Shown: positions 16,577 through 61,943 of the stretch, piece after piece | Layout of the letters: every line of letters starts with the position of its first letter | How positions within the stretch are numbered: the first letter of the stretch is position 1 | NCBI GenBank assembly: GCA_030762935.1 | Contig: CM060887.1 | Coordinates: 12,826,501-12,890,500, forward strand | Length of the DNA: 64,000 nucleotides | Reading direction: 5' to 3' | From: Hymenopus coronatus | Lineage: Eukaryota > Arthropoda > Insecta > Mantodea > Hymenopodidae | Position numbers and translations under genes: made by a program | Notes under the pieces: model-generated | What the model was told of the DNA's origin: nothing | The model's input: only the letters and a program-made list of their open reading frames with translations | Database searches by the model: none

Positions 16577-16625
<49 letters not shown>

Positions 16626-22434: not shown

Positions 22435-25400
22435 ATCTAAAGCAAACAACTATTCACGACACATGCTGTGCTTACAAGAGAATTGGCAACATAGTCAGTG
22501 CCGACACATGAGGGAAGAAGCGTGTAATTGGTCCTAGCAGACAGCTTCCCCCCTTGGCTGTGCGCGTCAGCCCAGCACTGCAAACCTTGCCGATTTTCCT
22601 TCTCTGTCGCGTTTTGTTTTGAGTGTAGCAGAGCTCTAGCCAATAACAGTAAACTATATGTACAAAAAAAAAAAAAAAACGTAACGGGAAACCAAATTAG
22701 AGTGCCGATGCATCTGTCGAAATGAAACGAATCACATTTCTTTACTTTGGAAATTCACAGCGCTGGTATTGCTAAAGGTGGCCATACTAAATGCGCACAG
22801 GATTATTAAAAAATACTTTACACTTTTGGAGATGTATTCCTGACATCAAAACAAGAAAATAGAGTTATATAAACGTATGCTCTAAAACGCCTCGTTTTCG
22901 CTTTATCAATTTCTTAAATGAAAGTTATCTTCAAAGGCTTTCCGGGCCCAACCTAATGATTTAATTTATTTATGCACTCATTCATAGAATCAGAGTTGGC
23001 CTTGTGTTTCATGGCTACTTGTTAACATTATCAGATGTGTAATACATTCCCCCAGCACGCCTTACAAGTGCTATCTACAGGAACTTCATTAAGACCACTT
23101 CCCCATAATTATTAAAAAAATGTTCCTCTGCAAATAAGAAACATGTGGTTTATGCATCATGTTCTAACACGTTTTATCTTATTATTCGAGATGCATGGCT
23201 GGTACTAGCATGACAAATGGATAGATAGAGGAGGATCAGTTCCATGGCCCGCACGTTCCGCCGACCTCAATCCTTTGGATTTTTATCTTTTGGGGCACAT
23301 TAAACCATTGGTTTAAGCAGCAGACATCCCGAATGAAGAAACTCTTAATCCATGTATCATGAAAGCCTGCGAATCATACAACACCGATTGGCAGTATTTG
23401 ACATTCCATGCTTCAACGAGTGCATGCGTGTCTAGACGCAAGAGGAGGGCATTAGGATCATTTGCTATAAGTGGTGTTTGTGTGGAACACCTAACAAGCT
23501 GAATATGTCAAAAATAGAATAATGTGTCACTTTAAAATGTTTCGGTTAGTAGCATTTTGAACCTCAATAAATTGAGAACGAAGGGTTTTGGGACATTATT
23601 AACATCTTTACTTTCTCTACACATACTATGTTTAGTGTTCAGAGAAGGTATTGTATTACACCCAAAAATTCGATACCAAGATTTCACCGGAAATACATGT
23701 TTTGGGTCCCCCTGAATCCGAAAAGAAACATTTTTAGAAGAAGGGCTGTATGTAAATGTATGTGGACAGCATAACTCATAAACGAAAAGATCGTTAAATA
23801 CCAAACTTGGTATTTAAGTTTGGTATCTTCCAAGGATGCGACCCGAGATTTTCAAGAAAATCCCCCCCATCTACCCTTTACATGGGAAAAAATTCGAAAA
23901 TGTTGATTTTCTCAAAAATGGCTCTAACCATTTTGATTAAAATGTCGTATATTAAAGCTTACATCACAAATAAAATATATATATTCGATTTTCTGGGAAT
24001 AGCTTCTGCTCATTCCGGATGAATTTTGTATAACTGCTAAACCGTAAGCGATACACAAAATCTTGATAAGCATGTAAATCTTGTTAAAACACACCATTTA
24101 TGTCATACATTTTTGTTACAAAGCTGACCGAGATATTCCTTGTTATTAGTTTCGATTTTAAATACGCTTCTCAAACTGGGTCGCCTTTCGTTTCATTACT
24201 CTTTTGTTTTTCTGGAAATGGAAAGGAAACAGAACTTCAATTGTTCACATATCGCCCGGCTTTTAAAAGATTTGACTCGCTTGTATCAATAAAAAAATTC
24301 CCTGTGCATCCCAGAAAACATTCGCCATAATCTTGTTAGCTGACAAAATTGAGCTTTAACCTGGTATGTTCCCTTATTTCCCTTCTGCTTATAAGGAACT
24401 TTGCAATAAGACCAATTCTGTTAATGTCGTTTAGCATAATATAGGTAAAATAATAATCGTTTGTAAAAAGATTTGTTTTCGTAAAACAGGTAGGGAAAGT
24501 CATGTGAATGCAGCACATCAGATGCTTTTTAAATACCGTACTTGCTTTTCTGAAGCGATTCAGACATTGAGGGAGCCGCAGAGACCGGCTTGTCCTAGTG
24601 CGCATTCTCTCCTCTAACGGAAGCAAGACGAACTAGACTGCAGACGGAAACGAATCTGACAAAGCAGCTGATTGTTGGCATGAAGGTGAACAGGAAAAGG
24701 TGGCCATGGTGAGTAAGCCTTCAGAGACGTGACTCACGCAAAGAAATACTGAATCATAACTTACCAAGAGTGCCAGTTTCCTCGGCTTCTTCACAGCGAT
24801 GTACAACTCGAGTAACACCACTCGCCATTGCTAGACCACAATGCTCCTACCTGTGTGTGACGCCTTCACACTAAATCAGCTGGACAGGCCAAGACTATTT
24901 TTGAAAACGGCGCAGAATCTGAGAGTCTTCAGTAAATTTTTGGTTTGCTTTGCTACAGAACCTTCCACTCTCGAGGCGATCCCTGAAGTTACAGAATGAA
25001 AATAAACTTGTCTTTTCTTGACAAATGACAGACCTTATATTGGTCATTACACAGGAAAGGTGCCCGCTTAGGTGGTAGCGTGTCTGCCTCACATTCAACA
25101 AGTCGCGGGTTCGAATACCGCTTAGGGTGAGTTATCCGGATAGGGTTTTCTTTTTTCAGCGCTTACCCTTATCCTGAGAAGACGAATATCGACTAACTTC
25201 CATGGACCCCGAGATCATTTGAGCATCATTTCACCAACTTCATTCATTGTCTGATATGATCAACGAGGTTTAAAGGACGCTAAGTTACCCACACCCCAAA
25301 AAAGTGGAAACAAGAAATGCCAGGAACAGATTTGTGAACACATACAACAGTTTCACATGCGGTTAAAATGAAACATTTTAAACAAACTTTAATTTCTGTA

Positions 25401-25577
25401 CTTGCTGTTTATACACAATGTATGTTGAATAGCAACAATTTTTACTTTCTCTACCGAGTATGTACGTACATATGTGGAGAAGGTAGGTTTTGCATTCTAT
25501 CCAAAAATTCCATACCGATATTTCACCGGAAATACATTTTTGAGAACCCCCGAATAAAGAAAACACATTTTTATAAA

Positions 25578-25629
<52 letters not shown>

Positions 25630-28600
25630 ACAACATAACTGGAAAACGAAAATTCGGTTAAGTACTAAGTTCGGTATTTAATTTCAGTACATATCTTTTA
25701 AGGATGCGCCACGGGGATTTCCAGGAAAATCCCCCCCAACTACCCTTTATACGGAGATTTTTCGAAAATTTTGATTTTTTCAAAAATTCTCTAAGGTTTT
25801 GATTACGATACTAAATGATTAAAATATCTTTATGACAAAAAATGTATATCTGTAATTTTCTAGGAATAGTCATTTTGTAATGAAAGTTTATGGGACAGCT
25901 AGAGAAAGTCACGTGAATGAAATACATCATACGTTTTATTTTCTCCAATACATATGTACAATGTACAAAGTAGATAGAGAAGGCATTGCATTCCTTCCAA
26001 AAATCTGGTATCGGGATTACACCGGAGACCCCGTTGTTTTGAGTTTTTTCGAGACTCCCTGAATTAACAAAAAAGAAGTATTTTAGAAAAAGGTCCGTGT
26101 GTATGTGTGTGAGCACCAAAAACGAAAAGTCTGTTAAATACCAAACTATCTTTCAAGGATGCACACGAAAATTTTAGGGAAAATCCCCCACCCGAACTAT
26201 CTTAACATGGAACATTTTTCGAAAATTTGATTTTCTCTAAATGGCTCTAGCGATGTTAATCAGAATACTGTATCTTTACTTTCTCTATACATACTATGCA
26301 CATAGTGTTTACAGAAGGTATTGCACTCCACCAAAAAATTCGATACCGAGGTTTAACCAGAAATATAAGTTTTAGGGTCCCCTGTATTCAAAAAAAGTAT
26401 TTTCAGAAAAAGGTCCGTGTGTCTGTGAACACGATAACTCAAAAACGAAAAGTCAGTTAATTCCCAACCTTGGCATTAAGTTTTCTTCCAGGGATGCGAC
26501 ACGAAGATTTTGAGAAAAATCCCCCCACCCCAAACTACCCTTTACATGGAACTTTTTTCTAAATTTTGGATTTTCTAAAAATTGGCTCTAATGATTTAGA
26601 TTAAAATATCGTATATTAAAGATATTTACCTGACAAATGAAATGCATATTTTGAATTTTCTGGGAATAGCCTCTGAAGACTAATTTATTCTAGGTCAATT
26701 TTACGGAATTCTGTATAACTGCTAAACCGTAAGAGATGGGCAAAAACTAACAACACAACAAATGTAGAGCACTTTAAAACACACAATTTATATTATATAC
26801 ATTTTTTTCGAGGAGTTGGTCGTTTTTGAGATATACCTTGTTTTTGGTTTCAGCTATAAAACGCATACTTTTCTCATACAGGACTTTGTGAACACGTGTC
26901 CATACAAACAAAAGAACTTCAGTCACACAGCAACCAGCTTTTGACTATCACTTTAACCTATGGTACTCCCTCATTTCGCTTCTACTTATAAGGAAGCAAG
27001 TAATAAGACTATTTCTGCTAATTTTTTCTCGATTAGCAGGAAGTAAATAGAAGCATAAGTTCTTTAACAATAATTTATTGCAGAGCTGTAGAGAAAGTCA
27101 TGTGAATGGAGCACATCAGATTTTTAAGATTATACATTCATTTATAACAAAGCTATCTTTTATTTTCTGAGAATAGCCTCTGGAGACTTCTTCATTCTCT
27201 GTGACTTTTGGTAAACCGTAAGATAGAAGAAAATTTACTGCCCACCTGGGTAGTGTGTCTGCCTCACATTTAAAAGGTCGTGAGTTCGAATCTCGCTTAA
27301 GGTGAGTTACCCGGATAAGGTTTTTTTCGGGGTTTTCCCTTATCCTGAGAAGACTAATGTCTCCATGGACCCCGATATCATTTGAGCATCATTTCATTCA
27401 TCATCCGATATGACCAACCAGGTTAATGGACGTTAAACTAACTATATATATATATATAAATCTGGTTAAAAAAACACCATTTTTGTTTTGTTTTTTAGTT
27501 AACGTTCTCAAGATATTCCTTGTTATTGGTTTCAATTCTAGAATACTTTAAACTTTTCTTAATCGGGAAGTTATCTTTCATCTCTATCTGTTTTGTTTTA
27601 CTACTTGGAAAGAAAACTTTTTTCAATGGCAGCACACAGTGAAGGTGTTTAAAAGATTTGTCTGTCGCTTTTGCCTAGTGAACTCCCTTATTTCCTTATT
27701 TACTTACAAGGAAGCAAGTAAAGAGACAGTTTCTGCTAATGGTTATCTTGATTAACATTATTTAGATAAACGAATAATCTTTTGTAAGAATAATTTGTTT
27801 TCAGAACAGATAGTCATGCGAAAATATCATATTTTTTCAGTTGCACAGCTATCCAGTTATTTAGGTACACAGTACTACTCTGATATTTATTCTCAAATAT
27901 AAAATCCACAAGGTTTTCTAAAAAGTTAAATTTGTGTAGTAAGGCATAGGACTTAGAGAGCTGACCAAGGAAGTCGATAACTGCGAAAGTAACCTTTGAA
28001 TTGATGTAAGGAGTTGATACTACTTGACATTGTTGCAAATTCGGCAACGAATGTGACTCATCTGTACTTTTGTTAATCTAATCTTAATATATTGCTTCCT
28101 ATTATTGTCAGTTTTCAGGCTTTATCTCGCATTTTACTTATCTAATCTGAACGTGGTCATAGCTAACGCCTTTTATTTCTGCAGAATTTGCGTTTCTGAC
28201 TGTCAGACTGTTTACTTTCCTTGGTGCTAACCAGCCTCTGAAATGTTAGGCATTTATTCCTTTTTTAGGCGAAACTTTCACACAAGTGGACCCGGAAGTG
28301 CCGCGATTTTCTCCAGCCACTTTGTTCTCGCAACACATGTCTCCCTCGATCATGACGATATCTTTCGGATGATGAAACCTATTTCTAGTTAGGTATTTAA
28401 TCTTGTTTCCCCTACTCCTCGTTATATCTAAATTATTTTTTCTTTCTCTACACTATTATGTACATAGTGTATAGAGAAGGTATTGTAATGTACCCAAAAA
28501 ATTCGATACTGAGATTTCACCGGAAATATATGTTTTAGGGTCACCTTTATCTAAAAAAAAAAAAAAAAAAAAAAAATCTGATGTGTTCCATTCACATGAA

Positions 28601-29379
28601 TTTCTCTATATCTTTGCAACAAATTTTTGTTAAAAAGTTTATGCTTCTATTTACTTCATGCTAAGTGAGAAACATCTGATGTGTACAATTCACATGACCT
28701 TCTCTAAATCCCTTCAACAAATTATTCTTAAAAATATTATACTTCTATTTACTTTATGCTAATCAGAAAAAATTAGCAGAAATAGTCTTATTACTCGCTT
28801 CCTTGTAAGTAGAAGCGAAATAAGGGACAGCCATAGGTTCAAGTGATAGTCAAAAGCTGGTTGCTATGTCAATGAATTTCCTTTGTTTATATGGATAGGA
28901 GTTGACGTCAAGTTCCTGTATGAGAAAAGTATACGTTTTTCGTAACAGAAACCAAAAATAAGGAATGTCTCAAAAACGACGAACTTCACGAAAAAATGTA
29001 TATAACATAAATTGTGTGTTTTAATGTGCTCTACATTTTTTGTGTAGTAAGTTTTTGTCCATCTCTTACGGTTTACCAGTTATTCAAAATTTAGTAAAAT
29101 TCACCCAGAAAAAACTACTCTTCAGAGGCTATTCCCAGAAAATTCAAGATATACATTTCATTTGTCAGGTAAATATGTTTAATATCCGAAATTTTAATCA
29201 AAATCGTTAGAGCCATTTTTGAGAAAATCAAAATTTTCGAAAAAAAGTTCCATGTAAAGGGTAGTTGAGGGTGGGGGGATTTTTCTCAAAATCTTCGTGT
29301 CGCATCTGTGGAAGATACTAAACTTAAATACCAAGTTTGGTATTTTACCGACTTTTCGTTTTTGAGTTATCATGTTCAC

Positions 29380-29438
<59 letters not shown>

Positions 29439-30046
29439 CGTTGTTGTGAAATAGTTTTTTTTTGGATATTGGGGACCCTAAAACACATTTTCGGTGAAAT
29501 CTCGGTATCGAATTTTTGGGTGGAGTGCAATACCTTCTCTATACACTATGTTACATAGTGCGTATAAAGTAAAAAATAAGCAGAAATAGTCTTATTACTT
29601 GCTTCCCTGTAAGTAGAAGCGAAATAAGGGAGTAGTATAGGTTAAAGTGATAGCAAAATATGGTTGCTATATGACTGAAATTCCTTTGTTTGTATGGACA
29701 GGAGTTGACGAATTCCTGCATGAGAAAACTATACGTTTTTTAAGGCTGAAACAAAAAACAAGGAATATCTAAAAAACGATCAACTCCACGAAAAAATGTA
29801 CATAACATAAATTTTATGTCTTAATGGACTCTACATTTTTTGTGCGGTAAGTTTTTGTCTATCTCTTACGGTTTACCAGTTACACAAAATTCCGTAAAAT
29901 TGATCCTGAATAAAGTAGTCTTCAGAGGCTATTCCCAGAAAATTCAAGATATACATATTATTTGTCAAGTATATGTCTTTAACATATTATATTTTAATCA
30001 AAATCAGTTTGGTATTTAACGGTCTTTTCGTTTTTGAGCTGTGCTG

Positions 30047-30084
<38 letters not shown>

Positions 30085-31772
30085 CATTTTTCTAAAAATG
30101 CTTTTTTTGGATTCAGTTGGTCTCAAAACATGTATTTCCGGTGAAATCTCTTTATCGAATTTTTGGGTACAATACAATACCTTCTCTATACACTGTGTAC
30201 ATAGTACGTATAGTGAAAGTAAAAAGCATTTTCGGAAAAAGGTCCATGTGTCTGTGAACACGATAATTCAAAAACGAAAGTCGATAAAATACCAAACTTG
30301 GTATTTAAGTTTAGTATCTTTCAGAGATGTGACTCGAAGATTTGAGGAAAAGTTCTCCCAGCTCCAACTGCCCTTTACATGGAACTTCTTTCGAAAATTT
30401 TGATTTTCTCAAAAATGACTAACGATTTTGATTAAAATATCATATATTAAAGATATTTACCTGTCAAACAATATGTATATCTTGAATTTTCTGGGAATAG
30501 CATCTGAAGACTACTTTATTCTGGATCAATTTTACGGAATTTTGCATAACTGCTAAACCGTAAGAGATGGACAAACACTTATTACATAAGACGTGTAGAG
30601 TTTGTTAAAGCACACAATTTATAATACATACATTTTTTCGTGGAGCTGATCGTTTTTGAGATATTCCTTGTTATTGGTTTCAGCTTTAAAATACTTATAC
30701 TTTTCTCATACGGAAATTTGTCAACTCCTAGCCATACAAACAAAGGAACTTCAATCGCAAAGCAACCAGCTTTTAAAACATTTGACTGTCGCTTTAGACT
30801 ATGGTACTCCCTTATTTGCTTCTACTTACAAGGAAGCAAGTGATAAGGCAGTTTGTGCTTTTTTTTTTTTTTTTTTCTTTTCTCGATTAGCATGAAAGAA
30901 ATGAAAGCACAAGATTCTTAATAGTAATTTGTTGCAGAGATGTAGAGAAAGGCATGAGAATGGAACACGTCAGTTTTTGTTTCTTTATTAAACTTAATAA
31001 AATACCTAAGGTGTTCGTAATAATGTAGGTGCTATTATTTTATTAATGCCTTTGATAAATTAAGCACTTCAGAAATATGAACTTTTGGAAAGTAGCACGT
31101 TTGGTTTGAGATCGTCTTTAGTCTCGTTATGTTATGACCTGTGTATTGTTTCATTCATGAAGCTCTTGTGTGGACAAATAGAGCAGGGAGCTGGAGAGCG
31201 CGTCCTTGACCTTTGTGACGGAAGCGGGTGGACGCGGAAGAGAGCGGAATGGCGTCCCTCGCTGGAAGGTAACGCACCTATATGGAAATCTGCCATACAT
31301 GGCATGAACCCGCCGTGCGTCACGCGTGTCCTCAGCTCAAAATCAATTTGTCTTATTCTCAGGTGTTTTAAGCATACGTTTAATTCAACAGTAGTGGTAA
31401 AATTAATTACAAATCTGATGTGTTCAAACTATTCTTAATAAAATGCAATTTTCTGACTATTACACGTTAATCCAGATAAACATTTGCATAGATACATTTT
31501 TATTATCAGTATACGATGGTTCCACCACGACACTACTTCAATACGTGGCTACTTTTGTTATGGTGTGCAGATGGAGGATATTAGGAAAATATTACTGCCG
31601 GAAATATTTTTAGCTTCAAGCAGACGAAGGACAACACTCTGGGATTTGATTCTAAACAGCAAAAAGTGGCCAAGCCTGGGCACATAATGAAAGTTCGCGC
31701 ACTGAGAGAGAAAAATGTGTGTAAATATTGTAGACTTATTTGCTGTTTGAGTAATCTATATGTATGAATAAT

Positions 31773-31837
<65 letters not shown>

Positions 31838-32329: not shown

Positions 32330-32372
<43 letters not shown>

Positions 32373-41300: not shown

Positions 41301-44300
41301 GTAATAAGACTATTTCTGCTAATTTTTCCTCGATTAGTATGAAGTAAACAGAAGCATAAGCTTTTTAACAATAAAGGTAATAATTTCACGAGGACGTTAA
41401 TCTATTTTATCGTTATAAACTGGCCTGACGACAACTGATGTATCGTATCAAGATGAACAAAATTCATCTGTTTGGTGATTAATCTGATGATAAGTATCAG
41501 AGTAGTGACGTCCGTTCTCTAACGCCCAAGGACGGCTGCTGTTTACCGAAATAATATGTAAGTGACCTTTTACTACCTTATAAAGAACGTAGAGGTTGTC
41601 CACTCTTCGGTACCAACATCTGTCCGTACAACTGCTGGTCTCTCTTAGGAGGAAGTAATATCTGTCCTTCACATTAAATGCATAGCTGCTTAGATTTGGA
41701 TGAAATCTTCAAAATATACACTCAATGAAACCTTACGTTAGTTGACACGGGTTATTCTGACTTCGCAGTGTTTTTAGGTTCATACCAGCGTAACATATGA
41801 CTAAACAAAAGAGCAATTTAAAGTTCGGTGCCTGTAAATTTTCCATCCATTTTTATACGCACTACCTTGGATTATCTCCTTATATAGCACAAGGTTCGCT
41901 ATAAACCAAGTGCGCGATTTAACGGATTGATGTCTACTTCCATGGCGATAGTAGGAATAAATAAATAAATACATAAATAAAATCTAAAATCCGAATATGC
42001 TACACAGGCACTTATGTAAAATATTCTAATTTATTTCCAAGAACAAACATTACAAATTTTATTATTTAATGCCTTCAGATGGTTAACTAAACTAAAAACT
42101 AACATTAAATTTAAAATCGGTAACTAAATATCTAGAATATAAAAAAAATCTTATGTTCCATTCACATAAGCTTCTCTACCCATTCTACAAACTTCTTACA
42201 AAAGATTATTCTCCTTTCTACTCCATGCTAATTGAGATAAGCATTAGTAGAATGGTCTTAGTTCTTTAATTAGAAGGGATATAAGGGAATACGTTATGCT
42301 AAAGTGATAGTCACAAGTCGCTATGAGATTGTCACTGAAATTCGTTTCTTTCCATGCTTTGAATGGTGCATCTCCAGCTTAATTCACTCTGCATTCACAG
42401 AAAGTTTATCGGCAAATATAAATGGGGAGAAAATGAATACCTGAATAAAATACTTTAGCACTTTACTGTGTAAAATACAAACGTACAATCGGATCCGTAA
42501 AAAACGACCAAGGTGCTTAACTCAGATCATACAGAGTACGGAGAATGAATTCCATAAGGGAGGAACTGCAAATAATGATCACAAAACAACAATAAATAAT
42601 GCTACTGTACAGTCACCCAACTTTCTCTACTCATTTAACAACAAACTATTCTTTAAATGAAGCTTATTCTTCTTTCCACTTAACGTTAATCGAAATAAAC
42701 ATTGAATAAACAATTTTATTACGCATTCCCTTATAGATACAAAGTAATAAGGGAATACAGTAGGCTTAAGTAATAGTCAAATCACTTAAGAGCTGGTTGT
42801 TATGTGATGGCTCTGAAATTCCGACGTCGTTAGGAAGATATGAGAATTTAAAAATTGAAACCAGTAGCAACGAATATCTTGGAAATAGTTTATTCATAAA
42901 AAAGAATAAAAAAAAAGAAGAAAGGATTGTTTCACCTATATTGGTATACTGTATGTTTTAACGAGATCTAAATTTTAAATTGAAGATATGCATGTCAAAG
43001 ATTTTATTTTATATACTTTGAATATATATCATAAGTATATAATTTCCAAATTTGTTGTTAGTCAATTTTGAGAAAATCAAAACTTTCGAGAAAATGTCCA
43101 TGTAAAGGATAGTTTGGAGTGGGGGATTTTCTTGAAAGTCTTCATGTCAAATTCTTGGAAGGTCCTTAACTTAAATATCTAGTTTGAAATTTTACCGACT
43201 TTTCATTTTTGAGGTATGCATTTCATATGCACACGCGCGTGCGTTTACGATGAAATCTTTGGCATCGAAATTCTGGATGGAATACTATAGATACTTTCCT
43301 TACTATACGCAACAGAGAAAATAATACTGCGGCGTGTTCACATTTTAAAACCTTGGCTACCGGTTTATTCAAATGCATTGCATATTTTCTCTAATGCAGT
43401 TGGGTTTTTGTGATCAACTTTGTCCGCTACACCATGTGTAGATGCATATGAAGGCTATCAACAGCAAAACAAAACACCTACCAAATCCTCGTACAGAAAC
43501 CTAACTTGAATTTCCTGTAAGATAGGAAGGCCATTTCCAAAAAATCTGATCTGTTCCATTCACATGCCTTTCTCTACATCTCTGCAACAAATTATTCTTA
43601 AAAAGTTTATACTTCTATTTACTTCATACTGATCAGAAAAAATTCACAGAAATAGTCTTATTACTTGCTTCCTTGTTACTAGAAGCGAAGTATAGGTTAA
43701 AGTGATAGTCAAAAGCTGGTTGCTATGTCACTGAAGTTCCTTTGCTTGTATGGACAGAGTTGACAAGTTCCTGTATGAGAAAAGTACTCGTATGTTTTTC
43801 AAAGCAGAAACCAAAAAGAAGGAATGTCTTAAAAATGAACTCCACGAAAAAAAAAATGTATATAACATAAATTGTGTGTTTGAACGTGCTCTACATTTTT
43901 GGTGAGGTAAGCTTTTTCCCATCTCTTACGGTTTAGCAGTTATGCAATATTCCGTAAAATTCATTCAGAATAAAGTGATTTTATTTGTCGGGTAAATATC
44001 TTTAATATACCATATTTTAATCAAAATCGTTAGCCATTTTTGAAAATTTCAAAATTTTCGAAAAAAGTTCCATGTGAAGGGTAGTTTGGAGTGGGTGGAT
44101 TTTTCTCAAAATCTTCGTGTCGCATCCCTGGAAGATACTAAACTTAAATACCAAGTTTGGTATTTTACCGACTTTTAGTTTTTGAGTTTTCGTGTTCACA
44201 GACACACAGACATACGTACACACACACAAACACGGACCTTTTTCTGAAAATTCTGTTTTTGGTTATAGGGGATCCTAAAACATCTACTTCCGGTGAAATC

Positions 44301-47300
44301 TGCAGAGAAATAAATAGTGGTGTCAGTTTTAACTGCAATGAAATCGAAGCCAGAGTTCTGCAAAGAGGGCGCAAGAGCAGTTGGTAATACTGAAGTGGAA
44401 AGGAGAAGAATACGTCTTATAGTATGTATTGAAACAATTAGTAACATTATTCGACCTGGTCCTTCAGCAATCCGATTAGCCGCTAATTTAAACAATTGTT
44501 ACCTTCTCTATACGTACTATGAACATTGTGTATAGAGAAGGTATTGTAATGCACCCAAAGATTCGTGTGTGTGTGTGTGTGTGTGTGTACAGCACAGCTC
44601 AAAAACGAAAAGACGGTTAAATACAAAATTTGGTATTTAAGTTTGGTATTTTCTAAAGATGCGACACGGAGATTTTCAAGAAAATCCCCCCACCCCTAGC
44701 TACCCTTTACATGGAAAAATTTACAACAAAATTGCTTTTCTTAAAACTAGCTGTAACGATTTTGATTAAAATACCACATATTAAAGCCACCTCTATAATA
44801 AAACGTATATCTTGAATTTTCTAGGAATAGCTTCTAAAACATGTATTTCCAGTGAAATCTCGGTATCGAATTTTTGGGTGGAATACAATATTTCTCTATC
44901 CCTATGTACATTGTAAAAAGCACTTGGAACTGAATAAGTGGATACATCCAGACGGATCTATTTGTGTATGGGCTATATATAGTTCACCTCGACGCCGTGC
45001 AAGAACAAGGATGTTAAAGAAGCCCCTTTTACCAAGAAGTGGCCTTCGGGCTAGAGTCCAAAATCCCATACAAACGTACGAATGAAATATTCCGCGAGGA
45101 AGTGTTCATTCTGTCTTAAAAATAAACATTCCTTCTAACATCGTTTCCCGTGAAGCAGATTTTGAGATTACTGCTAGAAACTGCAGATGTCACATAATGG
45201 GCAAAATAGTTTCTTTCTCTACACGTACTATGTACATAGTGTATAGAGAAGGTATTGCACTCCACACAAAAATTCCATACTGAGCTTTCACCGGAAATAT
45301 ATTCTTCGAGACCTTGAATAAAAAAAAAAATCGAAAAATGACCGTGTGGTGGGGGGCAGCATAGCTCAAAAACGAAAATTCCGTTAAATACCAGACTTGG
45401 TATTTAAGTGGTATCTTCCAGGAATATTACCCCATCCCTAACTACCTTTTATATGGAACATTTTTCGAAAATTTTGATTTTCTCAAAAATGGCTCTCACG
45501 AGTTTTATTAAAATCTCTTTTATATAAGATATTTACATGGCAAATAAAATGTATATCTTCAATTTTCTGGGAATAGCCTCTGGAGACATGTTTATTCTGG
45601 ATGAATTTTGCGGAATTTTGCATAACTGGTAAACCGTAAGAGATAGACAAAAGCTTAAAACACAAAACGTGTAGAGCTCGATAAAACACACAATTTGTTA
45701 TATACTTTTTTTTTTTTCGTGGAGTTGACCGTTTTTGAGATATTCCTTGTTATTAGTTCGGTTTTAAAATACTTATACTTTTCTCAATACGGAAAATATG
45801 TAGCATGGTACTCCCTTATTTCCTTTCTACTTACAAGGAAGCAAGTAATAAGACTATTTCTGCTATTTTTTCTCGATTAGCATGTAGTAAATAGAAGCAT
45901 AAGCTTTTTAACAATAATTTGTTGCAGAGATGTAGGGAAAGTCATGTGAATGGAACACATCAACTTTTTTTAAGACAAGTTTGTTTGCGGAAGTGATAGA
46001 GAAAGTAATGTGGATGGAACACATGAGATTTTTCATTTACTTGGAGCAGGTGGAAGAAGAAATGGTGGCTGATACAGCACACTGAGTTGAGGAAGTGTCA
46101 CAGCTGATTTCTGGCCAGAATGCTTGGATATCGGCCAAATCTCAAGGCCAGTAAACGGCATTCGAGTTTCTCACTGCAACAAATTCCTGCCGTAACCTTA
46201 TGTTGTGTTTTGTTTTGGAGTTAAAAACAAACATTGGGCTGAAGAACCCCAGTCATTAAGGAACTTCATCTCGAAGAATGTTCTTTTTTTATTTTCTCTA
46301 CGCGTACTGTGCCCATAGTGCATAGAGAAAGTATTGTATTGCACCCAAAAATTCGAAACCAAGATTTCACCGGAGGTACATGTTTCAAGACCTTCTGAAT
46401 CCCCTCAAAAAAGCATTTTTAGAAAAGTGTCCGGTATGTGTACAGCCTAGGTCAAAAATGAAAAGTCATGAAATACCAAACTTGGTATTTAAGTTCAATA
46501 TCTTCCAAGGATGTGACACGAAGAATTTCAGAAAAATCTCCGCCACCCCTAAACTCCATTTTACAAGATTTTTTTTTCTCGAAAATGTTGATTTTATCTA
46601 TAATGGTTGATTAAAATATTTACACCTGTGAAGACATCTATATTCTGGATGAATGTTGAGGAATTTTGCATAACTGGTAAACCGTAAGAGATGGACAAAA
46701 GCTCACAAAAATGTAGAGCTCGTTAAAACACACAATTTAGTTATTTAGTTTTTTCGTGAATTTAACCGTTTTTAGATACTCCTTGTTGTTGGTTTTATAC
46801 CGGAATTTGTCAACACCTGGCCATAACCAATAAAGGAACTTCAACCACAAGACAACCAGCGTTTAAAAGATTTGACTCACTTTAAGATATGGTACTCCCT
46901 TATTTCCCTTCTACTTACAAGGAAGCAAGTAATAAGACTATTTCTGCTGATTTTTTCTCAATTAGCATGTAGCTAATAGACAAATAAGTTTTTTAACAAT
47001 ACTTTATTGCATATATGTTGTGAAAGTCATGTGAATGGAGCGCATCATATTTTTTTTTTTTATTCTTTCATTTAGATAGCCTCTTTTAACTTCTTTAACA
47101 CATTAACTCTCACATACATACTTCCAGACTCTGTGGGGGATAGGGAATATTTCTGGTTAAAGAAAATGTTTCCGCCCCAGCCAGGAATCGAACCCGGGAC
47201 CTCTGGGTGAGAAACCAGGACGCCGATCACTTGCTGGCGACAGAGCAGCGCAGAACTTACCTTTTTATATTGTAGTTCGGAAATTCGTTCCTGACTAATC

Positions 47301-50203
47301 AAGAACGGAGTAAAACGAACTATCAGAGTTAAGTTCTTAGAAAGGTTAGGAGGATAGAAATAAGACTTTAGAAATGAACTAAAAATGTACACATTACACA
47401 TAAAACAGATGAAAATAGAATTAAATGGAAAAAGAATATTGAAAGAATGGAGGACAGGAGAATCTTCAAGAAGGGAGCAAGTTATACACCTGAAGGAGGA
47501 GGATGTCTGGACGATTAAGGAAAACATGGCACGATCTCTGACGTCGGTACAGGCTTCCACGAAGAGCAAAAGTAAAGGAAGAAGAGGAAAATGACAGAAA
47601 ATCCATGTATATTGAACGGTCAATGGGTCAGCATTGAGGCCAAGAAAGAATAAATGGATTGTGCTATGCAGTTTATTTAATCCAACAGCTAGTTCAAACG
47701 GGAAGAACTTTTAGAGCTGACATATCAAAGGTTTTTATCCACTACTGCCATTTAAACTCTCGTTTGTTTTGTCGTTGCTAGTAATCTAAAAGCTGGTTTT
47801 AATCAAAGTGATGAATTAAAAGTTTGTATACTATTGTTACATCATTACTTTCCCTGGCACGTATGTACAATGTACATAGTAGACGGAAAAGGTATTGTAA
47901 ACATAACGCCATGGCACGACAGTCCACAAAGTACCATGGCCTTCCGCCCGGCCGCTGCATACCCCATCTCGGCCCGAATGAGGTGCAGTACTGGAGGGTG
48001 AGACGTGATCAGCGCCTCGAGTCCCTCCCGGCCGATTGATGCGGTTTTCTCGATCTGGAGCCGCTACTTCTCAAACAAGTAGCTCCTCAATTCGCCCCCC
48101 AGGGACCCCACGAGGCTGAGTGCACCCCGGACCTCGAGATCTCCTGAACCCAAGAAAAACATTTTTAGAAACATGTCTGTATAGTGTGTGTCTGTGGGTA
48201 GCATACTCAAAAACGAAAATTCGGCTAAATACCAAACTTGGTATTTAAGTTCAGTATCTTCCAAGGATGTAACACGAAGATTTTTTAAAAAACTCTTCCA
48301 CCCCAACTGCTCTTTACATGTATTTTTTTTTTTATTTTTATTTTCTCAAAAAATAGCTGTAAAGATTTTGGTTAAAATGTCATATGTTTAAGAAATTTAT
48401 ATCTTGAATTTTCTGGGAATGCCCTCCGAAGACTTCTTCATTCTGAATGATTTCTGTATAACTCTTAAACTGTAAGAGAGAGAGAGAGACACAAACAGTA
48501 GATTTCGTCAAATCACACAATTTTGTCAGTTTCCAAGCAGAATTTTTAAAACAAAATATTAAGGATTTTCAAAAAATGCTGAATTTTTTAAATTTTGCTC
48601 GAAATTTAACTTTAAAAGTTAGGAACAAGTGGCAAAAAGGGGGGGAAACACATACTCCGTATTTTCTCTGGGTATTTAATACATGCACATCTGATAAAAT
48701 ATGAGAATCAAAAATTCTGATCGAATGCAATAATTGCTCTACCGTAGTGAAAGATAAATAAAATAACCAAATAAATTAATTAAGAAATGCGAAAAGAGCG
48801 ACTTGGAACTCCACCATCCTGTATTGTTGTCCTGGGCTTAGGAATTACTACTAACAGTAGATTCAATAGAGAAAGCAAGCCTATTGCATCAAATTTAACG
48901 TAAATATCAAGTAACAGTAATAAATAAAAACAGAAGTGTGTATTAATTCAAGAGTAAATAGCTAGTTTCTATGTGGTATTTACATCCTTTTAATTTATTA
49001 TAAATAAATCTCTATAACATGGGTTCGAATCCTCTTGATATAGGTTGTAGGGCGTTTTTCATTTTTAAATATTCCATAATGATGTAACAGGAAAAAATAA
49101 ATACATATAAATTAGAATATAGTAGAATAGGCTACCTATATTTTAGAAATGCAAAATTTGTGTTTTAATTTCCTTTAATTTAATTAACTTAAGGGCAGCT
49201 GTTAAAATGCAAGTTTTTGTTTTTATATTGCTTTTTATTGGAAGGATTTCATTATAATTTGGTTTATTTAATTTCAGTGGAAATGCTTCAATCGTATAAT
49301 ATATTTAAGGTTATTTGCTACTGTATTTTTATTAGATACAAAATATGAGTAATCAATGGTATGAAGTATTATTGCCAAAAGGAAAGATAATCAATACTAG
49401 TAAACTAATATAATATAGCTATCTCAAGAAGACAAGCAAAAGCAAGAATTTAATATTAAACGTAATGATTGGCACTACAGAAAGTAGAGTACAGAAAGTA
49501 CTTGGGTAACATTATTTGCAGTGGTGCTAGAATGTAACAGGAGGTATTAAACAAAGTAAAAACAATGATACATCAGATGCTACTAAATATAATACAATAG
49601 CCAAGAAAACAGAGTATTATAAAAACAACAAATGAAGATATATCACACAAATAAAACTAGTATTAGTTGACACTACTAGACAAACTTAAATAAAAAGCAG
49701 TGGAGAAGAGAAGAAATGCTGAAGAAGGGAATCTAAAGGAATAGAAATTAAATAATAATAATAATAATAACAATATTATTATTAAGTGGTAAAATTGACT
49801 AAAATCTATAATTGAGGTTATAAAAGAGAAACAAACGAAATGGTTTTGATTAGAAAGAGGGAGGAAAGTTACGCAGCAATAAAGATGAGAGTAGCAGAAA
49901 AAAATGAGGACAATCAAGAATCAATAGATAAAAACTAAAATAATAATAATAATAATAATAATAATAATTAATAGTAATACAAAAATGGGGATAAACAATA
50001 GCCAGAATAAAAATGTGCATGCAGTAGCGTAGCCAGAAACATGTTAAGGGGAGGGGTTATGTATAGGATTCCATTTTTAAACAATTCGTTTAAAATTCAA
50101 ATTATAAACATGAAGTAATTCTGAGTTGAAATATTCCAAAAATGCATTTTATATTTATAGATTACGTGTAGCAATTGCAATTAAATTTTTGTTTCCTTTT
50201 TCT

Positions 50204-50235
<32 letters not shown>

Positions 50236-50465
50236 ATAAGCAATGCAGGACTAACCCCTGACCCCCTCTCCCGGTTACGCTATGGAAGGAATGGTTGGAA
50301 AGGGATGAAGATATTCTGTTTTTCTGATTAAAGGAAAAGGTTTCTCGTTATCACAGTGGGTTTCACACACAATTCACGTTAACTTTGCACTGACTTACCT
50401 AGATTGTTATTCTCTTTGGCGTCATTACATCGACCCACGACCCTGATGATGGCTCTTCCTGCCAT
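11276..50465 (-). CDS. LRRC20: LRRC20-like leucine-rich repeat gene, four coding exons per transcript, two alternative first exons
   Basis: Joining 24828-24765 or 50465-50399 to 18234-18091, 13987-13820 and 11439-11276 gives one open frame of 179 or 180 codons plus stop. In the 179-aa form, LRRs (LxxLxLxxNxLxxLP type) lie at about residues 44-66, 67-89, 91-112, 114-136 and 138-150, for example [16 protein letters not shown] and [14 protein letters not shown]. The segment across the last intron, [14 protein letters not shown] then VDLRENPL, matches the corresponding part of vertebrate LRRC20 as I recall it, and the length agrees with that family (about 184 aa in human). No signal peptide, membrane segment or catalytic domain is visible, so a small intracellular LRR scaffold is likely; the molecular role of the family is not established. 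All introns are phase 1 and every donor is G|GTAAGT. The gene covers at least 39 kb because its introns are packed with repeats. Orthology is confident; function is unknown. Confidence 0.93.
11849..12152 (-). mobile_element. SINE type 1 in intron 3, imperfect target duplication
   Basis: ATGCCTTGAAAT (11849-11860) and ATGTCTTAAAAT (12141-12152) flank it, 10 of 12 identical. Head and body match 10302-10600 with many transitions at CpG, so it is older. Confidence 0.85.
12185..12368 (-). pseudogene. Transposase fossil (Tc1/mariner-type DDE, QDGAPPH segment)
   Basis: The minus strand gives [11 protein letters not shown], then a degenerate WPP-stop-SADLNQ, and, in a shifted frame, [19 protein letters not shown]. 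This corresponds to the QDGAPPH / WPPRSPDLNPLDFWLWGYLK block of the DDE domain in insect Tc1/mariner-like transposases. Stops and a frameshift show it is inactive. It lies in intron 3 of the LRRC20-like gene. Confidence 0.75.
12620..12725 (+). mobile_element. Old tRNA-derived SINE (type 5-like)
   Basis: TTAGCTTAGTTTGTTAGAGC (A-box-like), GTGGTTCAAATCTCAGC (B-box-like), then ATGCATTGAATTTTTCAGC, which follows the same order as the copies at 55545-55640 and 59575-59650. Confidence 0.6.
12726..13819. other. Intron 3 sequence
   Basis: AT-rich intron of the LRRC20-like gene. No further element recognised. Confidence 0.6.
13820..13987 (-). CDS. LRRC20: LRRC20-like coding exon 3 (core LRRs)
   Basis: 168 bp. 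The acceptor is TTACAG|AACTG (AG at 13989-13988) and the donor is GTTG|GTAAGT (GT at 13819-13818). It encodes residues 70-125: [31 protein letters not shown] and [12 protein letters not shown], about two and a half typical LRRs. It is phase 1 at both ends; the trailing G plus AC of exon 4 makes Asp126. Confidence 0.95.
14280..15215 (-). repeat. Family A copy (minus) interrupted by a SINE
   Basis: Matches family A in reverse from the AAAAGTATGAG/CGGTCAACTCC region to the terminal GTACGTGTAGAGAAAGTAAA at about 15215. The copy is split at 14823-15011 by a type 1 SINE body. Confidence 0.85.
14823..15011 (-). mobile_element. SINE type 1 body nested in family A, flanked by 44-bp direct repeats
   Basis: The SINE body lacks its tRNA head. 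The flanking family A segment is present twice, at 14779-14822 and 15012-15055, with two mismatches in 44 bases, far longer than the 12-16 bp duplications beside the other SINEs. Confidence 0.8.
15216..15861. other. No gene recognised
   Basis: Intron 2 sequence. It includes a short inverted stretch, TACTTCGATACCACGAG / TATCGAAGTATGACG near 15258-15290, and TTATTGAATTCAA repeats near 15765-15810. Confidence 0.45.
15862..16775 (-). repeat. Family A copy (minus), near full length
   Basis: Starts ATCTGATGTGTACCATTC and ends near TATGGAGAAAGTAATAAAC, with all intermediate landmarks present. A CA repeat at 16579-16622 replaces the GTGTCTGTGAACACG segment. Confidence 0.92.
16579..16622. repeat. (CA)n microsatellite inside family A
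   Basis: CA tract at the family A internal site, next to GGACCTTTTTGTG. Confidence 0.97.
17064..17490 (-). mobile_element. tRNA-derived SINE cluster (type 4) with (GA)n
   Basis: The minus strand has a head with TGAACACCGTGGCCCC and CCCAGGTTCGATCTC at about 17435-17480, then TTTTCTCCGGGTATTACGG and CATTTCATATCACATTC, matching 58840-59130. A second tRNA-like stretch, GTTAGAGCACTTGCCTGC, lies at about 17155-17185. A GA repeat at 17189-17249 separates the two. Confidence 0.75.
17500..18065. repeat. Family A fragments: minus 17500-17700, plus 17702-18065 split by the NUMT
   Basis: The first part reads in reverse (ATTTTAATCATGATCG, TTCCATGTAATGG). The second reads forward from TTTTTACTTTTTGTACACAT to AAATACCAAACTTAG, with the cytochrome b piece inserted after the terminal palindrome. 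Confidence 0.8.
17740..17930 (+). pseudogene. NUMT: nuclear copy of the 3' end of mitochondrial cytochrome b
   Basis: Read with the invertebrate mitochondrial code (TGA=Trp, ATA=Met), the segment gives GGVIILVMSIAILFLMPLT, then [12 protein letters not shown], then WIGARPVE, the characteristic C-terminus of cytochrome b. Near the end a single missing base (GAA-ACCCT instead of a GAC codon) shifts the frame; the next bases restore the usual PYILT-type ending. With the standard nuclear code it has internal stops. It sits inside a copy of family A: the left flank ends ATGTATAG and the right flank resumes at GAGAACGTGTTGTATTC. This is a short fossil and not a functional gene. Confidence 0.93.
18091..18234 (-). 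CDS. LRRC20: LRRC20-like coding exon 2
   Basis: 144 bp. The acceptor is TTTGCAG|ATCTG with AG at 18236-18235, and the donor is ACAG|GTAAGT with GT at 18090-18089. It encodes residues 22-69, starting [17 protein letters not shown] and ending [10 protein letters not shown], with one trailing base. Both ends are phase 1 and the length is a multiple of three, so skipping this exon would keep the frame. The translation has no stop and carries LRR-type hydrophobic spacing. Confidence 0.94.
18595..18790 (+). mobile_element. Old tRNA-derived SINE related to type 1
   Basis: TGGTGTAAGGTCAGCCTCTA, then GTCGCGGGTTCTATCCCAGG (B box), then a body with GCTTCCTTCGAAGGAAAAG and AAAGCCGTGC, paralleling type 1 SINEs but diverged. 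It lies in intron 1 of the proximal transcript. Confidence 0.65.
18800..19485. other. Intron sequence, nothing recognised
   Basis: Mixed-composition unique DNA with no open frame of note. Confidence 0.5.
19486..20152 (+). repeat. Family A copy (plus), 5' truncated
   Basis: Starts within palindrome 2 (TTGGTATTTAAGTTTGG) and runs to GTGAATGGAACAGATCA. Confidence 0.9.
20418..21255 (+). repeat. Family A copy (plus), near full length
   Basis: From TTTACTTTCTCTACACGTAC to TGTGAATTTAACACATCAGA with all landmarks in order. Confidence 0.92.
21868..22503. repeat. Large diverged palindrome / foldback element
   Basis: Left-arm CGCGAGAGATCCGAGAG near 21978-21995 is the reverse complement of CTCTCGGATCTCTCGCG near 22283-22301. 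Nested inside, TTTTCGCTCACTCCTCTAAG (about 22087) pairs with CTTAGGTGAATGAGCGAGAA (about 22155), with a centre near 22130. Outer segments ATCGTTAAATTATAAGG and CCTAATAATTTAATGACCC also pair, so the arms extend over at least 21921-22365. The arms are imperfect, so it is an old inverted duplication or foldback transposon. An A33 tract lies in the right arm (22399-22431). Confidence 0.85.
22504..23214. other. No gene recognised
   Basis: Includes a GC-richer part (22540-22640) and an A17 tract at about 22663-22679. The last 200 bases may be more of the transposon whose transposase fragment follows. Confidence 0.4.
23215..23502 (+). pseudogene. Transposase C-terminal fragment (Tc1/mariner-type DDE)
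   Basis: The frame from 23215 reads [18 protein letters not shown] followed by [19 protein letters not shown] then interrupts it, and about 60 more codons continue in frame ([16 protein letters not shown] and onward) to TGA at 23500. The WPARSxDLNPLDF block holds the third catalytic acidic residue region of this superfamily. One premature stop and loss of everything upstream mark it as a fossil. Confidence 0.85.
23606..24530 (+). repeat. Family A copy (plus), near full length, diverged
   Basis: From TTTACTTTCTCTACACATAC to GTGAATGCAGCACATCAGA. Palindrome 2 is perfect at 23794-23817. Confidence 0.92.
24531..24764. other. Intron side of exon 1b, CpG-containing unique sequence
   Basis: Repeat-free and less AT-rich. 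On the plus strand it holds GGCCATG|GTGAGTAAG (about 24702-24717), a donor-like match with no supporting exon. Confidence 0.4.
24765..24828 (-). CDS. LRRC20: LRRC20-like alternative first coding exon 1b (proximal)
   Basis: Encodes 21 codons from ATG at 24828 (context AGCAATGGCG), containing [16 protein letters not shown], plus one base, and ends CTTG|GTAAGT (donor GT at 24764-24763). The spare G joins AT of exon 2 to give TLDLSECQL across the junction. It resembles the distal exon 1a in sequence, length and phase, so the two are alternative N-termini produced by exon duplication. Upstream bases to about 24890 are unique sequence that would carry its 5' UTR or promoter. Confidence 0.88.
25062..25300 (+). 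mobile_element. tRNA-derived SINE (type 2)
   Basis: Head TTAGGTGGTAGCGTGTCTGC and GTCGCGGGTTCGAATACCGC, then GTGAGTTATCCGGATAGGG, CTTATCCTGAGAAGAC, CATGGACCCCGA, TTTGAGCATCATTTCACC. The same order occurs at 27236-27445. Confidence 0.9.
25438..27125 (+). repeat. Three family A copies in head-to-tail array (plus)
   Basis: 25438-25937 (internally deleted, with a GT repeat at 25580-25628), 25938-26272 (5' part only) and 26273-27125 (near full length) follow one another directly in the same orientation. Confidence 0.88.
27236..27445 (+). mobile_element. tRNA-derived SINE (type 2)
   Basis: Head CCTGGGTAGTGTGTCTGCC and GGTCGTGAGTTCGAATCTCGC, and the shared body through GTTAATGGACGTTAAAC. A TA repeat follows at about 27444-27457. 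Confidence 0.88.
27446..28434. other. Diverged family A remnant, then unique intron sequence
   Basis: 27460-27835 still shows family A landmarks (AGATATTCCTTGTTATTGG, TACTTACAAGGAAGCAAG). From 27836 the DNA is unique. A 77-codon minus-strand frame (27814-28047) has ordinary amino-acid composition but no motif I recognise. Confidence 0.5.
28435..30975. repeat. Cluster of four family A copies in opposed orientations
   Basis: Plus 28435-28569 (5' end only), minus 28570-29574 (with a duplicated terminus at 28570 and 28676), minus 29575-30224, plus 30225-30975. CA repeats at 29382-29435 and 30049-30081 occupy the usual internal site. Minus followed by plus makes long inverted repeats. Confidence 0.88.
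31085..31480. other. GC-rich, CpG-containing island, no gene confirmed
   Basis: 31180-31330 is markedly richer in C+G and CpG than the window. On the plus strand it contains GGAATGGCGTCCCTCGCTGG followed by AAG|GTAACG, which would suit a first exon, but no downstream exon could be joined convincingly. Confidence 0.3.
31496..32345 (+). repeat. Family B (MITE-like) left end and a separated body
   Basis: 31496-31565 matches the left end of the element at 58057-58447 (TACGATGGTTCCACCAC). 32066-32310 matches its body (TTTGTTATTTC, TTTAGGGTCCTAAGCCGC, AATCTGTGAAGCTAAAAC). About 500 bp of other sequence, including a GT repeat at 31771-31837, lies between. A second GT repeat at 32331-32371 follows. 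Confidence 0.65.
32613..33200. repeat. Family A fragments
   Basis: Plus 32613-32925 (5' part, with ACTACTATACATAGTG), then a minus scrap at 32938-33002 (GGACCTTTTTCTAAAAATAT, ATTTCCGGTG), then a weak minus terminus at 33145-33200. Confidence 0.75.
33808..33888 (+). CDS. Candidate small ORF, 26 aa, acidic
   Basis: ATAAAATGGCGG is a good start context. The frame reads [18 protein letters not shown] and ends QAAEGAK, with TGA at 33886-33888. The acidic, Ala/Glu-rich composition is unlike translated AT-rich intron. A second ATG overlaps the stop (ATGA at 33885) and opens 22 more codons. It could be a micropeptide, the first exon remnant of a nested gene, or chance. I do not recognise it. Confidence 0.25.
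   Translation: MADDLNEMNVESAEPNEIMQAAEGAK
35028..35290. repeat. Short inverted repeats bounding about 260 bp
   Basis: CCATAGTGATCCCTGACAG at about 35033-35051 and CTGCCAGGGATCACTATGG at about 35265-35283 are inverted copies with one mismatch. The interior has no coding signal I recognise. Possibly a MITE or part of one. Confidence 0.55.
36500..37255 (+). repeat. Family A copy (plus) split by a SINE
   Basis: 36500-36784 runs from CCCTTTACATG to ATACACATTTTTT. After the SINE, 37017-37255 resumes at GATGTTTTTGAGATACTTC and continues to AGCATGAAATAGACAG. Confidence 0.85.
36785..37016 (-). mobile_element. SINE type 1 nested in family A, head lost
   Basis: Minus-strand body with GGGACGCTGAGAACCACAG and TTCCTTCGGAAGGGAAG. 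It stops at CGGAGGACGAA without the tRNA head, so it is 5' truncated. Confidence 0.88.
37256..38080 (-). repeat. Family A copy (minus) plus terminal scrap
   Basis: Minus 37256-38005 from GATGTGTTCTTTTCACATG to TATAGAGAAAGTAATAAGC, followed by a short plus 3' end (38015-38080, TGTTACAGAGATGTAGAG). Confidence 0.88.
38081..39120 (+). other. Unique intron, possible old LINE 3' tail at 38640-39030
   Basis: CTCTGCCACCGGGCGTACCC then AATTACAAAGAATAAAATAC looks like the 3' end of a non-LTR element, but no reverse transcriptase remnant precedes it, so the call is weak. Confidence 0.3.
39130..39995 (+). repeat. Family A copy (plus), diverged
   Basis: Recognisable from ACGTATAGTAAGTACGG and TTGTATTCCACCCAAAATCC through AAATACCAAACTTGG and GATTTTCTCAAAATG to ATATGAATGGTACAC. 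Confidence 0.8.
39996..40593. other. No gene recognised
   Basis: Unique, with a GC-richer part at 40300-40460. Short frames only. Confidence 0.45.
40594..41378 (+). repeat. Family A copy (plus), near full length
   Basis: From CTACTTTCTCTACATGTAC to AGAAGCATAAGCTTTTTAAC. Confidence 0.92.
41379..42140. other. Unique intron block with an unassigned minus-strand frame
   Basis: The minus strand 41672-41448 encodes 74 codons ([20 protein letters not shown] ... [18 protein letters not shown]) with balanced composition including W, C and H. It lies outside all repeats I recognise. No family is recognised and no splice partner was found. Confidence 0.25.
42145..43330 (-). repeat. Family A copies (minus), strongly diverged
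   Basis: Begins ATCTTATGTTCCATTCACAT and ends near CAACAGAGAAAATAATAC. It contains a partial second start near 42600 (CTTTCTCTACTCATTTAACA), so it is probably two overlapping old copies. Confidence 0.7.
43540..44305 (-). repeat. Family A copy (minus)
   Basis: From AATCTGATCTGTTCCATTC to CATCTACTTCCGGTGAAATC. The terminal palindrome is missing because other sequence (44306-44498) follows. Confidence 0.88.
44306..44498. other. Unassigned insert between family A copies
   Basis: 190 bp of unique sequence. A plus-strand frame across it (including [15 protein letters not shown] and [15 protein letters not shown]) has no family I recognise. Confidence 0.35.
44499..44915. repeat. Family A: plus 44499-44837, minus terminus 44838-44915
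   Basis: The plus part runs from ACCTTCTCTATACGTACTAT to TTTCTAGGAATAGC. Then CATGTATTTCCAGTGAAATC begins a reversed 5' end. Confidence 0.82.
44916..45207. other. No gene recognised
   Basis: Unique segment with a plus-strand frame containing [16 protein letters not shown]. Similarity not recognised. Confidence 0.35.
45208..45970 (+). repeat. Family A copy (plus) with the clearest terminal palindrome
   Basis: 45213-45252 is nearly self-complementary about the core CTATGTACATAG, with a 2-nt bulge. The remaining landmarks are in order to GAATGGAACACATCA. Confidence 0.92.
46292..47056 (+). repeat. Family A copy (plus)
   Basis: From ATTTTCTCTACGCGTACTG to GTGAATGGAGCGCATCA, with the CATCTATATTCTGGATG block directly after a small deletion. 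A short 3'-end scrap lies just upstream at 45985-46035. Confidence 0.9.
47085..47225 (-). mobile_element. tRNA-derived SINE (type 6)
   Basis: The minus strand reads TGGTTTCTCACCCAGAGGTC and CCCGGGTTCGATTCCTGGC (B box), then AATATTCCCTATCC and CAGAGTCTGGAAGTATG, as at 63360-63500. Confidence 0.85.
47226..47844. other. Unassigned sequence with opposing open frames
   Basis: The minus 183-codon frame is partly SINE; the plus frame at 47385-47594 (70 codons, [20 protein letters not shown] and charged) overlaps it. Neither shows a known motif. Possibly a degenerate retroelement. Confidence 0.3.
47845..48505 (+). repeat. Family A copy (plus) split by a SINE
   Basis: The terminal palindrome region (ATGTACAATGTACATAGTAG) and GGTATTGTAAAC lie left of the SINE; TCCTGAACCCAAGAAAAAC onward lies right of it. 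Confidence 0.85.
47921..48140 (-). mobile_element. SINE type 3 (tRNA-Met-like family), nested in family A
   Basis: Reverse complement of the central and 3' part of 54867-55200: GGGACCCCACGAGGCTGAG, GAGTGCACCCCGG, GCGGCCGGGCGGAAGGCC. GC-rich island in AT-rich surroundings. Confidence 0.88.
48506..50024. other. AT-rich intron with TAA repeats, no gene
   Basis: (TAA)n tracts at about 49753-49770 and 49938-49968. Otherwise unique. Confidence 0.6.
50025..50288. mobile_element. MITE-like element with CAGTAGCGTAGCC-type inverted ends
   Basis: AGTAGCGTAGCCAG with GGGGAGGGGTTA on the left (50026-50060) is mirrored by TAACCCCTGACCCCCTCTCC then CGGTTACGCTATGG on the right (50252-50285). Such ends are typical of hAT-like non-autonomous transposons. 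A T29 tract at 50208-50236 sits inside. It is about 110 bp from the exon 1a donor. Confidence 0.6.
50399..50465 (-). CDS. LRRC20: LRRC20-like alternative first coding exon 1a (distal)
   Basis: Encodes 22 codons from ATG at 50465, containing [19 protein letters not shown], plus one base, and ends CTAG|GTAAGT (donor GT at 50398-50397). The spare G joins AT of exon 2 to make Asp (GAT). It aligns with the proximal exon 1b around RVVxRCxxAxE. The same frame is open upstream to an in-frame TAG near 50590, with further ATGs including one at 50546, so a form longer by 27 residues is possible. I chose the start at 50465 because it matches the start of exon 1b. Confidence 0.88.
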
Positions 50466-59650: not shown

Positions 59651-59654
59651 ATTG

Positions 59655-61909: not shown

Positions 61910-61943
<34 letters not shown>

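What the first reader, a model, noticed from the sequence alone, without database searches (positions are those of the whole stretch)
24765..50465. Two homologous, mutually exclusive first coding exons for the LRRC20-like gene
50465-50399 and 24828-24765 each have an ATG, 21-22 codons, a phase-1 end and a G|GTAAGT donor, and both splice in frame to exon 2. The peptides align around RVVxRCxxAxE. This implies a duplicated first exon with its own promoter, giving two N-terminal isoforms 25.6 kb apart. The rest of the protein is shared, so the difference probably sets expression or partner choice.
Basis: partly seen in the sequence, partly recalled or inferred. Interest (0 to 1): 0.85.

Follow-up and report, generated by a model that had tools for sequence, protein, structure and literature searches.

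The report
Ancient twin start exons of LRRC20
A small insect leucine-rich-repeat gene has two interchangeable first coding exons, far apart in the genome, that give one protein two different front ends; the same pair is annotated in several insect orders, so it looks like an old, kept feature rather than an accident of this genome.

Summary
On the minus strand the window carries a complete LRRC20/Sclp gene: exon 1A (CDS 50546-50399), exon 1B (24828-24765), exon 2 (18234-18091), exon 3 (13987-13820) and exon 4 (11439-11276, stop). Both first exons end G|GTAAGT in phase 1 and read in frame into exon 2. One correction: the A start codon is 50546, not 50465. Exon 1A encodes 49 codons, beginning with a tail (MRPPQFGADITN) shared with relatives. 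Isoform A is 207 aa, B 179 aa. Profiles built only from other species' proteins pick 1A and 1B as the only significant window hits, each best with its own class. In ten of ten A/B pairs that I picked from the listings, in six insect orders, the two proteins are identical from the exon 1/2 junction to the C-terminus. They are therefore alternative first exons of one gene, probably older than those orders. AlphaFold models put the swapped part in the LRR's N-terminal capping helix, with an extra low-confidence tail in A. Separate promoters and tissue use are inferred; no RNA data were available. The kind is known (alternative first exons); eight literature searches listed no paper on this pair.

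The parts
50399..50546 (-). Exon 1A, coding part: [49 protein letters not shown] + first base of the next codon; donor G|GTAAGT
   Evidence: A-profile hit E 1.2e-15; relatives share the peptide along its length
50547..50800 (-). Putative promoter and 5' UTR of 1A: NRF1-like palindrome GGCGCATGCGCA (about 50774-50763), TATATAA about 166 nt and TATCGAT about 24 nt upstream of the ATG
   Evidence: Consensus patterns recalled; the NRF1-type pattern occurs once on the two strands of the window (its match is on the + strand here); function not shown
24765..24828 (-). Exon 1B, coding part: [21 protein letters not shown] + first base of the next codon; donor G|GTAAGT; in-frame stop 7 codons before the ATG
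   Evidence: B-profile hit E 6e-15
24829..25230 (-). Region upstream of 1B where its promoter would lie; 39% of it matches repeats found elsewhere in the window
   Evidence: no clear core promoter motif
18091..18234 (-). Exon 2, shared: (D)[17 protein letters not shown]...FSLIT
   Evidence: relatives
13820..13987 (-). Exon 3, shared: [16 protein letters not shown]...HNHIV
11276..11439 (-). Exon 4, shared, ends ...[10 protein letters not shown] stop
   Evidence: EDWEDLT stands in the consensus of alignments A1 and A2

Best explanation
The window holds a complete LRRC20/Sclp gene, probably of an orthopteran insect (nearest proteins are orthopteran), with two alternative first coding exons. Transcription from an upstream promoter uses exon 1A and makes a 207-residue protein with a conserved, probably disordered N-terminal tail and one version of the LRR capping helix. 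Transcription from a second promoter about 25.7 kb downstream uses exon 1B and makes a 179-residue protein with the other version of the capping helix and no tail. Both splice to the same exons 2-4. Shown by sequence: both exons, the splice phases, their class membership and the conservation of the pair. Inferred: that each exon has its own start of transcription, that the two are used in different tissues or stages (my guess is a broad form, A, and a more regulated form, B), and that the tail of A recruits a partner that B lacks.
For: Both spliced reading frames are open from ATG to stop. Profiles from other species assign each exon to its own class, with no third copy in the window; with the junction included, window A scores 71.7 bits with the A profile and 43.3 with B, window B scores 42.8 with A and 65.2 with B. 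Ten of ten A/B pairs that I picked, in Hemiptera, Phasmatodea, Orthoptera, Coleoptera, Hymenoptera and Lepidoptera (orders from my own knowledge), share an identical suffix that begins one or two residues before the split D codon of LDLSEC. Several are named isoform X1 and X2 of one species. A Habropoda bee gene model strings the A core, then the B core, then exon 2, so both lie in that order there too (P0172). In Lygus hesperus A and B are separate UniRef entries. AlphaFold on the Bacillus rossius pair: A has a helix at 20-47 after a low-confidence tail, B a helix at 2-18, then the same order of strands and helices.
Against: No RNA evidence for this window; the window's own assembly could not be searched (searches did not complete). 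No clear core promoter upstream of 1B. No B form is listed for the closest named relative, Anabrus simplex, only its A form (one search shows 120 of 237 rows). Isoform names do not always mean A versus B: Neocloeon X1 and X2 are both A, with X2 starting at an inner methionine. Some B models have extra residues before the B methionine (P0251 Apis dorsata, P0273, P0274, P0281, P0305), which I take for translated 5' UTR, unproven.
Confidence: 0.9

Rival explanations
1. Only one of the two exons is used in this species; the other is a relic of the old pair that still looks intact.
For: No RNA data; window B departs from the commonest B residues at some positions (EEAEETGT against the consensus EEAQET..), and the one other orthopteran B that I saw by name is Schistocerca P0250.
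Against: 1B keeps ATG, frame, phase and donor, and the exon 1 residues that are invariant in the 44 aligned B proteins (44 of the 57 sorted as B); it scores 65.2 bits with a B profile made without it. A relic of this age should have decayed.
Confidence: 0.06
2. 1B is an internal cassette exon, included after 1A, not a separate first exon.
For: A Habropoda gene model joins A and B in one protein (P0172), and five other B models carry extra residues before the B methionine. In the window an AG 2 bases upstream of B's ATG would keep the frame.
Against: The other 7 of 8 AGs in the 72 bases upstream give a stop or a frame break, and the in-frame one has no pyrimidine tract. In 10 of 10 pairs that I compared the B protein begins at the B methionine. 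The Habropoda model may be a prediction that ran through B's 5' UTR.
Confidence: 0.03
3. The two exons belong to two paralogous genes, and the second gene's body lies outside the window.
For: Exon 1A is 32 kb from exon 2; the genome could not be searched for another copy.
Against: In 10 of 10 pairs the two isoforms are identical over 156-160 residues, which paralogues would hardly be; both exons lie on the same strand upstream of one exon 2 with matching phase.
Confidence: 0.01

Closest known systems
[quoted passage not shown]
   Same: Same gene: window isoform A is 88.0% and 88.9% identical over 208 columns to Anabrus simplex P0116 and to P0117; isoform pairs are annotated in other insects
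   Different: Nothing essential; the passages on Sclp that I saw (PMC6411687, PMC4440730, PMC5098726) do not mention isoforms
Genes with alternative first coding exons and alternative promoters, such as dystrophin (class recalled; PMC1790709 seen only as a search listing with the start of its abstract)
   Same: Separate 5' exons spliced to a common body, giving N-terminal isoforms
   Different: Here the two first exons are homologous to each other, encode the same structural element (the capping helix), and the pair is kept across insect orders
SHOC2, nearest solved structure by sequence
   Same: LRR ladder: sequence match over residues 28-175 of the relative P0118 (E 3.3e-36); second in the Foldseek list (probability 1.00, TM 0.61 by query length) after a Leptospira LRR protein
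   Different: SHOC2 is much longer; LRR proteins match each other widely, and nothing here shows that LRRC20 binds SHOC2's partners

Membership tests
LRRC20/Sclp family | Full-length match with the same N-cap plus LRR body | tested here: met
   88.0% identity over 208 columns to the protein named leucine-rich repeat-containing protein 20 of Anabrus simplex; LRR families in Pfam for the relatives P0118 and P0246 (window proteins not scanned)
Alternative first coding exons | Two ATG-bearing exons with the same end phase and donors, both in frame with one exon 2 | tested here: met
Alternative first coding exons | Same-gene isoforms that differ only before the exon 1/2 junction | tested here: met
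   10 of 10 picked pairs from other insects (nine within a species, one across two Schistocerca species); not tested on transcripts of this species
Alternative first coding exons | Each first exon has its own transcription start | not testable with these tools
   Needs CAGE or 5' RACE; motif matches upstream of 1A are only suggestive
Mutually exclusive exons | The two are never joined in one productive mRNA | tested here: inconclusive
   7 of 8 possible acceptors upstream of B break the frame or stop, one weak one does not
Homologous exon duplicates | The two exons share ancestry | tested here: met
   1B is the second window hit of the A profile (E 1.2e-7) and 1A the second of the B profile (E 1.4e-5)

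The most novel reading that the evidence does not exclude
One LRR gene has kept two versions of its N-terminal cap since before the insect orders compared here split, as two separately controlled isoforms; the A tail (M[RK]P..FGxDITN) is an isoform-specific docking motif that links the LRR scaffold to a partner that B cannot bind, so promoter choice switches the partner of an otherwise identical protein.
Probability: 0.3. Interest if true: 0.6.

Novelty: new member of a known kind. Interest (0 to 1): 0.42.

Why it matters
Homologous alternative first exons kept over such a span imply that the two N-termini do different jobs. The function of LRRC20/Sclp is poorly known, with links to muscle; the pair gives a direct handle, since removing one exon tests one isoform while the shared body stays intact. 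It also means that studies which treat Sclp as one transcript may mix two proteins.

Tried and rejected
Rejected: a third first exon in the window; the next A-profile hit is a 12-residue piece at 3556-3521, E 0.042, in sequence that by eye resembles the repeat upstream of 1B. Rejected: recent duplication. Led nowhere: promoter motifs. On the gene strand no MEF2-type site lies in the 800 bases upstream of 1B, and one lies upstream of 1A against 0.43 expected, so a muscle promoter is not supported by motifs. Considered and dropped: a KEN degron in exon 1A; KEN stands in 37 and QEN in 58 of 135 A-type ends, within the predicted helix. The FGxDITN motif is not universal: D[ILM]TN occurs in 59 of 131 A tails, against 13 of 188 protein bodies; rows named as bees, ants, butterflies and many beetles lack it.

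The first tree used a labelling rule that counted A rows with MAGR as B; one search corrects it, dropping P0257, and there P0002 still counts as A by rule although it starts like B. That tree of 128 unique 18-residue cores (76 A, 52 B) has a clade of 48 B and no A with support 0.79; 4 B rows fall outside (P0001, P0245, P0305 and Schistocerca P0250). The human protein (recalled) favours neither class (9.0 against 8.9 bits), so which exon is ancestral stays open.

The literature searches that listed no account of this isoform pair are 25 of 61 papers shown; 20 of 320 shown; the library lacks most subscription journals, and the 1999 moth SCLP paper is not held.

Full report
What is there. The minus strand carries a complete gene. 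Exon 1A (CDS 50546-50399), exon 1B (24828-24765), exon 2 (18234-18091), exon 3 (13987-13820) and exon 4 (11439-11276) give a 207-residue protein from 1A and a 179-residue protein from 1B, both open to the same stop. The window has 10 GGTAAGT sites on both strands; 4 have an ATG at least 20 codons upstream in an open phase-1 frame, and they are exons 1A, 1B, 2 and 3.

Correction of the start. The frame of 1A is open upstream of 50465 to an ATG at 50546, with a stop 15 codons before that ATG. Relatives start there: Anabrus simplex P0116 begins [38 protein letters not shown], against [37 protein letters not shown] in the window. Of 131 A-type proteins with at least 12 residues before the core, 119 have MRP or MKP in that stretch. 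Isoform A therefore has a tail that isoform B lacks.

Two classes. From the 307 proteins returned (listings of 115 of 115, 120 of 258 and 120 of 237 rows, with overlap) I sorted 135 A-type and 57 B-type N-termini by pattern; the rest lack exon 1 or fit neither pattern. Profiles from the 74 and 53 unique cores, without window sequence, find 50588-50382 best for A (1.2e-15) and 24846-24757 best for B (6e-15); each is second for the other (1.4e-5 and 1.2e-7) and nothing else is significant. With the junction included and the 26 test proteins left out (121 A and 51 B rows used), window A scores 71.7 with A and 43.3 with B, and window B scores 42.8 with A and 65.2 with B.

One gene, not two. I picked ten A/B pairs by name from the listings: Halyomorpha, Planococcus, Lygus, Bacillus rossius, Schistocerca (A from americana, B from serialis), Onthophagus, Pseudomyrmex, Neodiprion, Microctonus and Loxostege. 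In ten of ten the two proteins are identical over the last 156-160 residues, from one or two residues before the split D codon of the exon 1/2 junction. In Habropoda one gene model holds the A core, then the B core, then exon 2. Against a simple reading of names, Neocloeon X1 and X2 are both A, and five B models (P0251, P0273, P0274, P0281, P0305) have extra residues before the B methionine.

Age. Over 18 aligned columns in eleven taxa, the window included, A-A identity averages 0.77, B-B 0.61, A-B within a taxon 0.53 and A-B between taxa 0.51. A tree of 128 cores has a clade of 48 B with no A (support 0.79); 4 B fall outside, the Schistocerca one among them, so the tree supports but does not prove one origin. 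Shrimp and springtail proteins score as A (58.5 against 40.0 bits for Penaeus P0207; 63.0 against 42.0 for Orchesella P0197). Two proteins of unknown species start more like B (P0002, 30.0 against 20.5 bits; P0005, 23.2 against 21.1, marginal), so the split may predate insects, but this is weak.

Structure. AlphaFold models of the Bacillus rossius pair (A from 58 aligned proteins, mean pLDDT 83.2; B from 44, 86.2) show a helix that ends just before the first LRR strand in both, residues 20-47 in A and 2-18 in B; in A residues 1-3 and 6-26 have pLDDT under 50, which takes in the first turn or two of that helix. The alternative exons thus swap the capping helix and add or omit a probably disordered tail. 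These are models of relatives, not of the window's own proteins. The best sequence matches among solved structures are SHOC2; in Foldseek SHOC2 comes second after a Leptospira LRR protein.

Promoters and use. Upstream of 1A lies an NRF1-type palindrome whose pattern occurs once in the window, a TATATAA and a TATCGAT (patterns recalled). Upstream of 1B nothing comparable was found and 39% of the 402 bases is repeat. This fits a broad promoter at A but is only consensus matching. In humans LRRC20 is described as transcribed in almost all studied tissues with much higher levels in skeletal muscle (PMC8594701, passages); in flies Sclp was lower with mutant lamins in muscle (PMC4440730, passages), and a 1999 moth study is cited for a role in muscle death (PMC6411687, passages; the study itself not seen). 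A split into a general and a regulated isoform is a guess from these.

Literature. Searches listed no paper on this isoform pair (two of them show only part of what they found); the pair is visible in database names (isoform X1, X2), so it is annotated but, in what I could search, not discussed.

Verdict. Real, well supported, of a known kind, with a long record of conservation. The open part is what the two N-termini do.

Noticed in passing
15859-16766, 20412-21254, 26276-27125, 28670-29576, 43540-44301, 61272-62088, 62403-63288 and others: A repeat family of roughly 900 bases in many copies, about 65-92% alike, in both orientations; about 44% of the window lies in self-repeats, and none of the five coding exons does.
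   Followed up: partly
8630-9844 (-), 4695-5006 (+): Pieces with a reverse transcriptase domain, PF00078 (E 4.2e-8 and 1.8e-10), probably of retrotransposons.
   Followed up: partly
59580-59651 (+) and 59204-59267 (-): Two tRNA-like matches in Rfam (38.2 and 31.9 bits) that ARAGORN does not call; perhaps SINE-derived.
   Followed up: no
about 12139-12000 and 10600-10450 (-): Two copies of a tRNA-like sequence followed by a shared body (GGCTTCCTT..GGAAGTAAAGCCG), by eye a SINE family in intron 3 and the 3' flank.
   Followed up: no
P0172, P0251, P0273, P0281 (bee proteins): Residues just before the B methionine are alike in these models named as bees (such as SVCLGK, SVCLSK, VRLGK before MANAVTRV), which could be conserved 5' UTR read as protein or a longer B N-terminus in bees.
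   Followed up: no
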